Virus record (IMG/VR): IMGVR_UViG_3300042923_000281
Span: 186,001-250,000 of that record
DNA: 64,000 nucleotides
Direction: 5' to 3' (one strand)
Source of the DNA: a virus
The notes beneath the pieces are model-generated. The model was not told the origin of the DNA. It made no database searches and was given only the letters and a program-made list of their open reading frames with translations. Below are positions 20,484-23,592 of the stretch, piece by piece (positions within the stretch are counted from its first letter, which is position 1; the number at the start of each line of letters is the position of its first letter). Position numbers and translations under genes: made by a program.

Positions 20484-20867
20484 TTATGCACGAAACTCTG
20501 TGGCAGACATTGTTGGTGCATCCACAATCTGTTCGATGACATCGTATCGTCCTCGGTGGAGGAGTAACGCGATCATCGACAGCTTGCCCTTATCGCCCGG
20601 CGTTTGTGCCTGTAGCGAAGAACCGAATCGACTGATGACTCTTTCCATGAGAGAAGCGTACTTCTTCTCAATGATGGTCACCTTCATCGACTCGATCAGG
20701 GCAAGTAGTGGGATCTGTGCTTCGTCCGCCTCTAATGTGCGGATCTTCTCTGTACCCAACTCCATCGCGTGGCTGAATGACTTCCCAATGCCCATGAACT
20801 GAGCCGTTAGGTCAGCATTGTCATCGAAAGCCCCACGGAATGAAGGATGAAACAGGTAGTAATGCAT
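20484..20867 (-). CDS. Unknown small protein
   Basis: 127 residues, AGGAG ribosome site. Mostly helical with no recognised motif. It lies between the RNA array side gene at 21105 and a terminator, and belongs to the run of short accessory-type genes. Confidence 0.65.
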   Translation of the reverse strand: MHYYLFHPSFRGAFDDNADLTAQFMGIGKSFSHAMELGTEKIRTLEADEAQIPLLALIESMKVTIIEKKYASLMERVISRFGSSLQAQTPGDKGKLSMIALLLHRGRYDVIEQIVDAPTMSATEFRA

Positions 20868-21104
20868 GTAGCGCTCCTAGTGTGTGCTGCTTCCCCAAGC
20901 AACGTGGTGCGGCATAACTGCCCGCCTGCCTTGAAAGACAAACGGGCAGCTAGAGGCTTTGTCGGTCACTGTTCGACCGAGTCACATGTCGCGGCTGGCA
21001 TGAGCCAGATCGTACAACAGTCCATCCGGGTAACACTCAGGCATCTACTCAGACGGACCTCGAGTAGAGACTGCTCACTGGGTGTGCACCCCCATGAGAT
21101 GTGT
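20868..21104. other. 237-nt gap with stem-loops
   Basis: No convincing gene. Two stems are visible: ctgcccg/cgggcag (20918-20924 and 20943-20949) and tcggtc/gaccga nearby. They may terminate the gene at 21105 or continue the RNA array to the right. Confidence 0.4.
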
Positions 21105-21372: not shown

Positions 21373-21486
21373 CAGTGAAGCCGTTCTCCTCTCGTGTCCG
21401 GGACTTTTCCCTCATCCTGAGGACTATGCTCCCTGTTCGCCTTACGAGGGTTACTTAGAGCTCGGCTAACGAGTACAGCTTCACTG
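21373..21486 (-). ncRNA. Structured RNA candidate E (114 nt)
   Basis: Closed by a 9-bp perfect stem, cagtgaagc/gcttcactg. Inside, minus-strand hairpins CTCG-TTAGC-CGAG and GGGA-AAAG-TCCC within GTCC/GGAC are visible. No ORF of note and no tRNA T-arm. It abuts element F. Strand is inferred from the tRNAs. Confidence 0.45.
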
Positions 21487-21537
21487 GCGCGCTTTGAATC
21501 AACCAGCGGGACGGCGTCCGCCTACACCCTACGCGCC
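21486..21537 (-). ncRNA. Mini tRNA-like element F (52 nt)
   Basis: A 7-bp acceptor-like stem GGCGCGT/GCGCGCC with a following A, and a T-arm-like hairpin CGCT-GGTTGATTCAA-AGCG. There is no D-arm or anticodon arm. It could be a decayed tRNA or a minimal structured RNA. Confidence 0.35.
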
Positions 21538-21562
21538 GCGCAGGAATGCCACTGATTGAAAA

Positions 21563-21677
21563 GGGTCGTCCTGGGGAGACTCAAACTCCCGACCGCTGCC
21601 ACGTTGTTAGGCCCAAGTCCCTCGGAAGGGAGTATGGGCCTGAAAAGGCAGTGCTCTATCAACTGAGCTACAGGACC
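21563..21677 (-). tRNA. tRNA-Glu(TTC)-like gene with ~39-nt insertion in the anticodon loop
   Basis: Acceptor GGTCCTG/CAGGACG (6 of 7 pairs, G1-G72 mismatch), D-arm GCTC-AGTTGATA-GAGC, anticodon stem CTGCC/GGCAG, variable loop CGGTC and T-arm GGGAG-TTTGAGT-CTCCC are all in place. The anticodon loop is 46 nt instead of 7: TTTTCA, then a hairpin (GGCCCA/TGGGCC enclosing TCCC/GGGA), then AACAACGT. If the insertion follows position 37 the anticodon is TTC. The 3' end reads ACCC rather than CCA. It may be a decayed tRNA, an intron-bearing tRNA or a tRNA mimic. Confidence 0.6.
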
Positions 21678-21681
21678 GAAA

Positions 21682-21757
21682 TGGCTCCACGACCTGGACT
21701 CGAACCAGGGACACTACGGTTAACAGCCGTATGCTCTACCAACTGAGCTATCGCGGA
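21682..21757 (-). tRNA. tRNA-Asn(GTT)
   Basis: 76 nt with encoded CCA. Acceptor TCCGCGA/TCGTGGA, D-arm GCTC/GAGC, anticodon loop CTGTTAA between TACGG/CCGTA, T-arm CCTGG-TTCGAGT-CCAGG. Fully canonical. Confidence 0.95.
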
Positions 21758-21761
21758 ATGT

Positions 21762-21858
21762 GCTCACTGCTGGGCTATACCCAGATCCCCTGCGCTGCCA
21801 ATCCCATTCGCTTCGCCTTGAAGGGGCTTGCGGGATCGGCTGCCAATGGGCAGTGAGC
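21762..21858 (-). ncRNA. Structured RNA candidate A (97 nt)
   Basis: Closed by a 9-bp perfect stem gctcactgc/gcagtgagc. On the minus strand, CCGATCCC/GGGATTGG (8 bp with one G-U) and TGGG-TATAG-CCCA form further arms, and ATTGGCAGC occurs twice. It lies 4 nt from tRNA-Asn and 9 nt from element B, so it occupies a position in the array as a tRNA would. No T-arm or anticodon arm can be drawn. Confidence 0.5.
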
Positions 21859-21867
21859 GGTTTATCA

Positions 21868-21982
21868 ACATCTTCAAGTAGATTTCACCGTACCGTCGGC
21901 TGTGATGTTACTTTCTACTTGCCTACCTTTCGGCTGATTCCCTGCATCCAGGCTCACGCTTTAACTGGATACTTGAAGATGT
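21868..21982 (-). ncRNA. Structured RNA candidate B (115 nt)
   Basis: Closed by a 13-bp perfect stem acatcttcaagta/tacttgaagatgt. Internal arms on the minus strand include TCCAG/CTGGA and GCC/GGC. It lies 7 nt from tRNA-Gln. No tRNA arms and no ORF. A 13-bp perfect match across 89 nt is very unlikely by chance. Confidence 0.55.
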
Positions 21983-21989
21983 CGACAAC

Positions 21990-22068
21990 TGGAAGGGGCA
22001 TCTGGATTCGAACCAGAGAATGACAGGATCAAAACCTGTTGCCTTAGGCCAGACTTGGCTACACCCCT
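21990..22068 (-). tRNA. tRNA-Gln(TTG)
   Basis: 79 nt with encoded CCA. Acceptor AGGGGTG/TGCCCCT, extended D-arm, anticodon loop TTTTGAT between ACAGG/CCTGT, T-arm TCTGG-TTCGAAT-CCAGA. Confidence 0.93.
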
Positions 22069-22108
22069 AAATGCTTGGGACGTCACTCCCGTGTTGCAAT
22101 GTAGCGTT

Positions 22109-22297
22109 GAACGCTTCCCCTTATGTTCCGTTCTCTCTGAGGCGGGACTCGAACCCGCAACGGACATGAGCTCTGATGCCCTAGGGCCGCACTCATTCCA
22201 CACCAACGGACAGGCAGCCACAATGGACTTAGGGTTGTTGGACCGAAGCCCTCACCCTCGGGTATACCAATTCCCCCACTCGTGAGAGGAAGCGTTC
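22109..22297 (-). ncRNA. tRNA-Leu(GAG)-like RNA D inside a long closing stem (189 nt)
   Basis: Closed by a 10-bp perfect stem (ggaagcgttc/gaacgcttcc). Within it (22132-22288) a class II tRNA can be traced: D-arm GGGGAATTGGTATACC, anticodon stem CGAGG/CTTCG around GTGAGGG (anticodon GAG, Leu) and T-arm GCGGG-TTCGAGT-CCCGC. The variable region is ~85 nt instead of ~15 and holds its own hairpins (CCAACAA/TTGTGG, ATGAG/CTCAT); the acceptor is irregular (CTCTC/GAGAG and GAG/CTC with a bulge). No CCA is encoded. Confidence 0.5.
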
Positions 22298-22302
22298 GAA
22301 CA

Positions 22303-22379
22303 TGGCGGCTCCAAGGGGACTTGAACCCCTGACCCCCGGCGTGACAGGCCGGTGCTCTAACCAGCTGAGCTATGGAACC
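22303..22379 (-). tRNA. tRNA-Asp(GTC)
   Basis: 77 nt with encoded CCA. Acceptor GGTTCCA/TGGAGCC, D-arm GCTC/GAGC, anticodon loop CTGTCAC between CCGGC/GCCGG, T-arm AGGGG-TTCAAGT-CCCCT. Confidence 0.95.
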
Positions 22380-22386
22380 TAGAAGA

Positions 22387-22474
22387 TGGTGGAGAGAGAA
22401 GGATTCGAACCTTCGAAGTGCGGTCGCACGTCAGATTTACAGTCTGATCCCTTTGACCACTCGGGAACCTCTCC
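22387..22474 (-). tRNA. tRNA-Tyr(GTA)
   Basis: 88 nt, class II, CCA encoded. Acceptor GGAGAGG with its 3' strand, anticodon loop CTGTAAA between CAGA/TCTG, long variable arm, T-arm GAAGG-TTCGAAT-CCTTC. Confidence 0.95.
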
Positions 22475-22483
22475 TAATAGGGT

Positions 22484-22580
22484 GGAAAGGCCGTCGCCAT
22501 TAGCCGCGATGGCGATAACGCCGATCCGTTCGCTGCTCAAAGGCTGCATGGATCACGGCGGCGGAGGCGACGGCCTTTCC
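22484..22580 (-). ncRNA. Structured RNA candidate C (97 nt)
   Basis: Closed by a 15-bp perfect stem ggaaaggccgtcgcc/ggcgacggcctttcc, extendable by one T-A pair. Internal arms on the minus strand: GATCC/GGATC extended by CGCC/GGCG, and GGCG-TTAT-CGCC. It lies 9 nt upstream of tRNA-Tyr and is the first long element of the array. Same length as element A but unrelated sequence. Confidence 0.55.
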
Positions 22581-22681
22581 AAACGCTCGAAGCCTAGGAC
22601 GTTTTTCGCCTACAACCGTTTAAGGGGTAAGGGACAAAGGCTCTTCACATAGACTACGTCCCTCGTGTAATTTTTTACACG
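22581..22681 (-). other. Upstream part of the RNA array: three short hairpins
   Basis: Three stems in a row: aaacg/cgttt (22581-22621) enclosing TAGG/CCTA, gggac/gtccc (22631-22662) and the AT-rich cgtgtaa-tttt-ttacacg (22664-22681). No gene and no TACATTAT box. The last could be an operator or part of a promoter for the array. Confidence 0.35.
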
Positions 22682-22749: not shown

Positions 22750-23592
22750 TTACACGAGACGACGGTTGCCGTCAGCCAGGTGCACTTCGATTTCGATCTG
22801 GAAGTCTTCGCTGAACGAGGAGGTCACGTGAGTGATACCACGCTGTGCATCGAGGCCGATGTCGAACAACAGCTCATCACCGATGTCGCCCGAGATGCCG
22901 AAGCCACGAACCATCTTCTCAACACGCACGGTAGCGTCGTCGATTGGATCGCCGTTCTGATTGAACACGCTGATCGCGCCGACCGGGATGTTGTAGATGG
23001 TGCCGGTGTAGCAGCAGGCGTCGATCTGACCTTCCAGCGCCTTGAAGATGCGCGGCATGATGTCGAAGCGAGTGCCGTTGGCTACCGAGAAACGGATCTT
23101 GGCTTTGTGTTCCACGCGAGCTTCTGGCAGCAGCAGTTCCAGACGCTGAGTCAGGACGGTGTCCAGCTCGTGCATCAGTTGCAGTTGCTTTTGTTGTAGG
23201 GCCAACTGGTGAATGTCCAGCGTTGGGAACTTGTCCAGGAACGCTTGACGCTCGGGAGCACGGTCGTCAACTTCAGCCGCCTTCTCGTCCTGGATGTCCA
23301 GGAAGGTACGCAGCTTGTTGACGCGGTCGTAGTTCTCAGCACGCTCGCCCTTGAGGCGCTGAATGAATGGGGGCAGATCAGAAGCATCACCGATAGCGAT
23401 GTACGCTTTCTCGAACGTTTCCACTGGCGAGAGGCTTACGTAGCCGTCTTCGTATTCGACGACGTAGACTTCCTCTTCCATGTTGGGATGGTTGCCGCCG
23501 ACTGCACGGGTTTCAGCAGCGAGGCTGCGGGTCATCTTGGCAGCGCGAACGATCTTGGTGCCAGTGTAGTGTTGGTAGGTTGGAAGCGACAT
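22750..23592 (-). CDS. Unknown protein, possible virion or early gene
   Basis: 280 residues; AAGGAT ribosome site before the ATG at 23592. A charged helical region (about 80-165) precedes a beta-rich C-terminal part (VNP-type turns, FNQNGDPIDDATVRVEK). No family recognised. Separated from the phosphatase gene by a 170-nt gap with a short coding leader. Confidence 0.65.
   Translation of the reverse strand: MSLPTYQHYTGTKIVRAAKMTRSLAAETRAVGGNHPNMEEEVYVVEYEDGYVSLSPVETFEKAYIAIGDASDLPPFIQRLKGERAENYDRVNKLRTFLDIQDEKAAEVDDRAPERQAFLDKFPTLDIHQLALQQKQLQLMHELDTVLTQRLELLLPEARVEHKAKIRFSVANGTRFDIMPRIFKALEGQIDACCYTGTIYNIPVGAISVFNQNGDPIDDATVRVEKMVRGFGISGDIGDELLFDIGLDAQRGITHVTSSFSEDFQIEIEVHLADGNRRLV

What the first reader, a model, noticed from the sequence alone, without database searches (positions are those of the whole stretch)
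21373..22681. tRNA array interleaved with non-tRNA structured RNAs
Between 21373 and 22580 four canonical tRNAs (Asn, Gln, Asp, Tyr) alternate with two interrupted tRNA-like genes and at least four other elements closed by perfect stems of 7 to 16 bp. Spacing between most elements is 4 to 25 nt, as in a processed precursor. The closing stems have unrelated sequences, which suggests that structure, not sequence, is what is maintained. No protein frame explains the region. They could be a new family of phage small RNAs, anticodon-nuclease decoys or decayed tRNAs.
Basis: partly seen in the sequence, partly recalled or inferred. Interest (0 to 1): 0.75.

Follow-up and report, generated by a model that had tools for sequence, protein, structure and literature searches.

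The report
Structured RNAs in phage tRNA array
A giant bacterial virus packs its tRNA genes together with at least six other folded RNAs, whose shapes have been kept in related viruses while their sequences changed; this points to real small RNAs, of unknown job, riding in the tRNA precursor.

Summary
On the minus strand of a 277-kb phage record lie four ordinary tRNAs (Tyr, Asp, Gln, Asn), two tRNA-like genes without a usable anticodon, and five non-tRNA elements closed by stems, mostly 1-8 nt apart. Inverted repeats are about 15 times denser here than in the rest of the window. Syntenic arrays occur in four IMG/VR contigs and, more distantly, in Pseudomonas phage DT01. Folds are conserved through compensatory changes: in element E1, nine of eleven outer closing pairs change on both sides yet stay paired in five phages, around a nearly invariant loop. 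Covariance models built from two sequences recovered held-out E1 and E6 relatives at the syntenic places. No Rfam family beyond tRNA fits; blastn found no counterpart in phage records. Elements come and go between relatives like cassettes. Most likely they are stable small RNAs cut from a common precursor by tRNA processing and acting in trans, the kind known from T4 rnaC/rnaD, whose function is also unknown. Decayed tRNAs are rejected for six elements (open for E2). An RNA anti-CRISPR reading of E4 is weak. Related arrays contain odder tRNA-like RNAs, including apparent double tRNAs joined at the anticodon.

The parts
22483..22581 (-). E1: 16-bp closing stem, inner stem, three-way junction with two hairpins; near-invariant loop GCAGCCTTTGAGCA
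   Evidence: Found in L007, L008, L018 and DT01 (L002) at the syntenic place; 9 of the 11 outer closing pairs show compensatory change, all Watson-Crick; held-out covariance hits; z -6.7
22387..22474 (-). tRNA-Tyr (GUA), CCA encoded
   Evidence: ARAGORN, Rfam 56 bits
22303..22379 (-). tRNA-Asp (GUC), CCA encoded
   Evidence: ARAGORN, Rfam 69 bits
22109..22297 (-). E2: tRNA-like, perfect T-arm, Leu-like D-arm, extended anticodon arm, long variable region, 13-bp outer closing stem, no CCA
   Evidence: inverted repeat I6; fold; found only in the window
22077..22094 (-). small hairpin ACACGGGAGTGACGTCCC upstream of tRNA-Gln, also upstream of Gln in L018
   Evidence: sequences
21990..22068 (-). tRNA-Gln (UUG), CCA encoded
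   Evidence: ARAGORN, Rfam 53 bits
21862..21988 (-). E3: 19-bp closing stem, 127 nt
   Evidence: same in L006/L007, absent in L008 and L018; too conserved to show covariation; z -5.1
21762..21858 (-). E4: 9-bp closing stem, long helix plus hairpin; 5' end resembles a type I-F CRISPR repeat in relatives
   Evidence: 4 pairs with compensatory change, 100% of cells paired, 5/500 shuffles reach it; for the CRISPR likeness
21682..21757 (-). tRNA-Asn (GUU), CCA encoded
   Evidence: ARAGORN, Rfam 67 bits
21564..21677 (-). Lys*: tRNA-like with intact D- and T-arms, anticodon loop replaced by a hairpin, 1-72 mismatch, no CCA
   Evidence: Rfam tRNA 48 bits; conserved in L007 and L008 with 4 compensatory pairs in the insert and 1 in the T-stem
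21496..21560 (-). E5: three-way junction, 11-bp closing stem
   Evidence: 3 compensatory pairs, 100% of cells paired
21373..21487 (-). E6: 12-bp closing stem, conserved core, followed by TCTTTTAT
   Evidence: held-out hit in L018 at 2e-17; closing stem re-sequenced with 5 compensatory pairs; 7 in all, 0/500 shuffles

Best explanation
The array is one minus-strand transcription unit in which tRNAs serve as processing signals between unrelated, stem-closed small RNAs. Cuts at tRNA 5' ends (RNase P) and 3' ends release E1-E6 and the tRNA-like RNAs as stable 65-190-nt molecules, whose closing stems protect their ends. They then act in trans, with conserved internal loops (such as GCAGCCUUUGAGCA of E1) as the binding surface, most likely for host or phage RNA-binding factors in the phage-host conflict. 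Shown by sequence: conserved folds, minus strand, modular gain and loss, no decoding capacity of Lys*. Inferred from established tRNA processing: the release. Inferred only: trans action and the conflict role. Likelihoods: conserved structured RNAs 0.95; released as discrete RNAs 0.75; trans-acting rather than cis 0.6; conflict role 0.35.
For: Covariation: E1 in five phages with closing, inner and hairpin stems rewritten but paired; E6 7 pairs; Lys* 5; E4 4; E5 3. Held-out covariance-model hits at the syntenic place: L008 1e-9, L018 5e-4, DT01 0.03 for E1; L018 2e-17 for E6, no other significant place in 378 kb apart from E1's own antisense strand. Elements differ between relatives: E3 absent in L008 and L018, E4/E5/Lys* absent in L018, E2 only here, other elements in their place. 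Spacers of 1-8 nt to tRNAs. Precedents with expression: T4 rnaC and rnaD are annotated as small stable RNAs in the T4 tRNA cluster and seen by Northern blot (PMC9697503); phiKZ has a Northern-confirmed ~100-nt RNA between PHIKZ298 and PHIKZ297 (PMC8545117), inside its tRNA region.
Against: No expression data for these phages. Few and related sequences per element (2-5), so shared ancestry is not separated from the covariation. E3 shows no covariation and E2 has no relative. No sigma-70-like promoter was found, though such phages use their own RNA polymerases. L006 has lost most of E1, so E1 is dispensable at least there.
Confidence: 0.6

Rival explanations
1. The elements act in cis: they are structured spacers that help to fold, cut or stabilise the tRNA precursor (for example RNase III sites or roadblocks) and are discarded.
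For: They lie between tRNAs; closing stems of 12-19 bp could be RNase III substrates; E6 ends the array before TCTTTTAT; array gaps in unrelated phages are also filled by stem-closed segments.
Against: E5 and E6, loops included, are 94-96% identical to L007 against 85-89% for flanking genes, and the E1 loop is nearly invariant while its stems change, unexpected for discarded spacers; tRNAs in the same arrays also stand directly next to each other without such spacers.
Confidence: 0.25
2. Decayed tRNAs or neutral spacer.
For: E2 and Lys* have T-arms and lack CCA and a normal anticodon loop.
Against: Covariation and held-out hits; Lys* insert kept paired in three phages; E1, E3-E6 have no tRNA resemblance.
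Confidence: 0.05
3. E4 is an RNA anti-CRISPR (Racr), a solitary repeat that binds Cas6f of type I-F systems.
For: E4 of L007 starts GTTCACTGCC-CATT-GGCAGCTTA: 19 of 19 aligned letters equal Rfam CRISPR-DR4, the best such match in 2.2 Mb counted over both strands; the C6-G20 base pair needed by RacrIF1 (PMC10651486) is present.
Against: Score 14 bits against a gathering score of 35, E 3.5; 18-of-23 matches occur by chance elsewhere; the window copy and L008 match less well; the covarying fold uses the same letters differently, and forcing the repeat hairpin costs 7-12 kcal/mol; loop one base short.
Confidence: 0.05
4. The insert of Lys* is an intron that is spliced out to give a working tRNA.
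For: Intact D-, T- and acceptor arms around an insert in the anticodon loop.
Against: No group I intron match in Rfam; removing the hairpin would not give a 7-base loop with one anticodon in all three phages (L007 lacks one T); no CCA; bacteria lack the archaeal-type splicing enzyme (own knowledge).
Confidence: 0.05

Closest known systems
Phage T4 rnaC and rnaD (species 1 and 2 RNAs)
   Same: Non-tRNA small stable RNAs encoded next to tRNAs in one cluster; rnaC has a T-arm and extended arms in its predicted fold, like E2; function unknown (PMC3014915).
   Different: No sequence relation; T4 has two at one end of the cluster, here seven interleaved with four tRNAs.
GOLLD and ROOL RNAs
   Same: Structured phage RNAs of unknown function near tRNA islands (PMC12286853).
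   Different: Hundreds of nucleotides long, single families in Rfam; no match here.
phiKZ ~100-nt RNA between PHIKZ298 and PHIKZ297
   Same: Jumbo Pseudomonas phage, tRNA region, Northern-confirmed.
   Different: Assumed by its finders to be a processed 3' UTR with a terminator; no relation to the elements here was seen.
Type I-F Racr / solitary repeat units
   Same: Partial sequence likeness of E4 5' end to the repeat.
   Different: Below the Rfam gathering score, and the conserved fold is another one.

Membership tests
T4 rnaC/rnaD-type RNAs of phage tRNA clusters (a kind, not a sequence family) | encoded within a phage tRNA cluster, non-tRNA, structured | tested here: met
T4 rnaC/rnaD-type RNAs of phage tRNA clusters (a kind, not a sequence family) | stable transcript of discrete size | not testable with these tools
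   needs Northern blot or small-RNA sequencing
T4 rnaC/rnaD-type RNAs of phage tRNA clusters (a kind, not a sequence family) | sequence homology to rnaC or rnaD | tested here: not met
   only short T-loop matches
tRNA (RF00005), for Lys* | model score over gathering cut-off | tested here: met
   48.2 bits against 29
tRNA (RF00005), for Lys* | 7-base anticodon loop and encoded 3' CCA, as in the other tRNAs of the array | tested here: not met
   41-nt insert, GACC end, 1-72 mismatch
Type I-F Racr, for E4 | repeat sequence and hairpin with C6-G20 pair | tested here: inconclusive
   19/19 aligned letters in L007 but 14.1 bits against 35; hairpin 7-12 kcal/mol above the best fold
GOLLD / ROOL | Rfam model over gathering score | tested here: not met
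MITE-like mobile element | shared terminal inverted repeats between copies | tested here: not met
   closing stems unrelated in sequence; stems covary

The most novel reading that the evidence does not exclude
Phage tRNA arrays are a general landing place for fast-changing, non-decoding structured RNAs, among them tRNA mimics whose anticodon is capped (Lys*) or which consist of two tRNA elbows fused through one continuous anticodon helix (L008, L018, L096); they are released by tRNA processing and act in trans against host RNA-targeting defence or on the translation machinery.
Probability: 0.25. Interest if true: 0.85.

Novelty: new variant of a known kind. Interest (0 to 1): 0.62.

Why it matters
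T4 rnaC and rnaD are still listed as of unknown function (PMC3014915; PMC9697503). These arrays give many further families with covariation, so that the question what such RNAs do can be asked comparatively and by deletion. Stem-closed segments that fill array gaps of phages D6, BcepSaruman and Ra_O-2 suggest that annotation of phage tRNA arrays often misses a layer of structured RNA. If they act in trans, phage tRNA arrays are also an arsenal of RNA effectors.

Tried and rejected
Rfam with gathering and relaxed thresholds: only tRNA, and chance hits. blastn of all non-tRNA elements against 50,697 phage records: nothing but chance; Lys* none. Exact core patterns of E1, E4, E5 in IMG/VR: only the same contigs. 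Anti-CRISPR reading of E4: followed and downgraded. Base pairing of elements to E. coli 16S/23S rRNA: at most 11 bases (Lys*), otherwise 9, about what chance allows. Complement of the E1 loop elsewhere in the phage genome: one site with a mismatch. Precise excision of E1 in L006: it is a deletion between GGC repeats, not removal at the stem ends. MAFFT alignment of E1 over all five is poor, so helices were compared by hand and by covariance model. Literature search for T4 band D RNA by that name gave nothing.

Full report
What is there. The window is 186001-250000 of a 276,978-base virus record. All tRNAs of that record found by the Rfam model lie in this one array. Read on the minus strand from 22581 to 21373, the order is E1, tRNA-Tyr, tRNA-Asp, E2, tRNA-Gln, E3, E4, tRNA-Asn, Lys*, E5, E6, between a gene of 280 aa (22750-23592) and a small ORF. 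Lys* is a fifth match to the tRNA model with an insert in the anticodon loop. Spacers are 1-8 nt, apart from 40 nt between E2 and Gln, where a small hairpin shared with L018 sits.

More than chance. In the 64-kb window there are 21 perfect inverted repeats of at least 9 bp enclosing 40-200 nt; five are in the 1.34 kb of the array, and none of 11 bp or more is elsewhere. Folding energies are below those of dinucleotide shuffles for E1 (z -6.7), E3 (-5.1), E4 (-4.1), Lys* (-3.4), E6 (-3.2) and E5 (-3.0), but hardly for E2 (-1.8).

Relatives. The 280-aa and 127-aa neighbours led to three IMG/VR contigs, and a profile to a fourth at 51% identity. L007 and L006 share one array, except that L006 lacks about 103 bp covering most of E1, a deletion between GGC repeats. 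L008 and L018 are more distant. The only relative found among 50,697 annotated phage records is Pseudomonas phage pPa_SNUABM_DT01, which suggests a Pseudomonas host. E1 occurs in all of these, E6 in the window, L007 and L018; E4, E5 and Lys* in the window, L007 and L008; E3 in the window and L007; E2 only in the window. The missing ones are not degraded but absent, with other stem-closed elements in the array.

Covariation. In E1 the closing stem reads GGAAAGGCCGTCGCC here, GAGAAAGGGCCTGGC in L008, GGAAGGCCCGC in L018 and GGAAAAGGCCCGGG in DT01; each is matched by its complement on the other side. Of the eleven outer pairs, nine show changes on both sides, and all are Watson-Crick in all five phages. 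The inner P2 stem reads GATCC, GCCGT or GGCCA with matching partners. The loop GCAGCCTTTGAGCA is nearly invariant. A covariance model built from the window and L007 only found L008 (1e-9), L018 (5e-4) and DT01 (0.03) at the syntenic place in 378 kb, with nothing else but its own antisense; in a whole-record search with a limit of 0.001, L018 and DT01 were not reported, so the DT01 assignment rests on position, fold and loop together. The E6 model found L018 at 2e-17, with five rewritten closing pairs and seven in all, reached by none of 500 shuffles. Lys* has five such pairs, four of them in the anticodon insert, E4 four, E5 three. Slid controls are lower throughout. E3 is too similar between its two copies to test. 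With two to five related sequences these counts do not replace a phylogeny-aware test.

Strand and coding. G-U pairs in E3, E5 and E6 pair only on the minus strand, and the E1 model scores 116 bits there against 34 on the plus strand. The compensatory pattern, not a reading frame, explains the substitutions.

What it most likely does. tRNA 5' and 3' processing would free each element with both ends inside its closing stem, a shape that resists exonucleases. I take release of discrete RNAs as likely and trans action as more likely than a pure role in cis, because E5 and E6 are conserved at tRNA-like level and the E1 loop is kept while its stems change. A role in phage-host conflict is suggested only by the fast gain and loss. 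The tRNA-like Lys* cannot decode: it has no anticodon loop and no CCA. The likeness of E4 to the type I-F CRISPR repeat was followed because RNA anti-CRISPRs exist (PMC10651486); the match is exact over 19 letters in L007 but weak by score, and the conserved fold uses those letters differently.

What is known. T4 carries rnaC and rnaD in its tRNA cluster, annotated as small stable RNAs; a review states that their roles are unknown (PMC3014915), and a 2022 study confirmed them by Northern blot (PMC9697503). In phiKZ a ~100-nt RNA was found by Grad-seq and Northern between PHIKZ298 and PHIKZ297 (PMC8545117), which is inside its tRNA region. GOLLD and ROOL also sit near tRNA islands (PMC12286853). 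So the kind is known; the families here are new, and the density and interleaving are unusual. No paper on structured RNAs interleaved in jumbo-phage tRNA arrays came up in the searches made, which cover open-licence papers only.

Wider pattern. In gaps of 45-330 nt between same-strand tRNAs, long stems beyond all 40 shuffles were also found in phages D6, BcepSaruman and Ra_O-2, one of the latter's filling the gap to the tRNA ends; most other gaps tested showed none, so this is widespread but not universal. Further types of tRNA-like RNA turned up in relatives and are listed as noticed in passing.

Noticed in passing
L018 8388-8540; L008 8033-8186; L096 5117-5270 (minus): Apparent double tRNA: acceptor, D-arm, a helix, T-arm, acceptor-like hairpin, D-arm, second strand of the helix, T-arm, acceptor. 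Two tRNA elbows would share one anticodon helix. Closing stem is rewritten between L008 (GACGAT/ATCGTC) and L018 (GACGTCA/TGACGTC); L096 (Erwinia phage SNUABM_9) has the same order of arms but was not matched by blastn.
   Followed up: partly
L099 1486-1600 (Erwinia phage SNUABM_11): Permuted tRNA elbow (T-arm, acceptor hairpin, D-arm) at the tip of a long helix; inner part 79.5% identical to that of SNUABM_9.
   Followed up: partly
L018 8150-8390; L008 7651-7850: Another structured element with a T-arm-like hairpin and covarying hairpins.
   Followed up: partly
window 20821-21104 (minus): Conserved, strongly structured non-coding stretch downstream of the array, 85% identical in L008 and 77% in DT01 in part; no Rfam match.
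   Followed up: no
window, L007, L018, L002, L003, L004: tRNAs kept in these arrays are mostly those with GUN anticodons (Asn, Asp, Tyr, His), the queuosine set and the target set of colicin E5-type nucleases; the link is from own knowledge.
   Followed up: no
L002 3878-4289 (minus): DT01 has further stem-closed segments (GGAGGCTCCC.., TTCTCAAGCC..) upstream of its E1 relative and tRNAs.
   Followed up: no
L006 6960-7030: Natural variant in which a 103-bp deletion removes most of E1 while the rest of the array equals L007.
   Followed up: partly
L098 5237-5331 and 5727-5956; L097 8117-8283; L004 3672-3816: Gaps between tRNAs holding segments with 13-19-bp closing stems in unrelated phages.
   Followed up: partly
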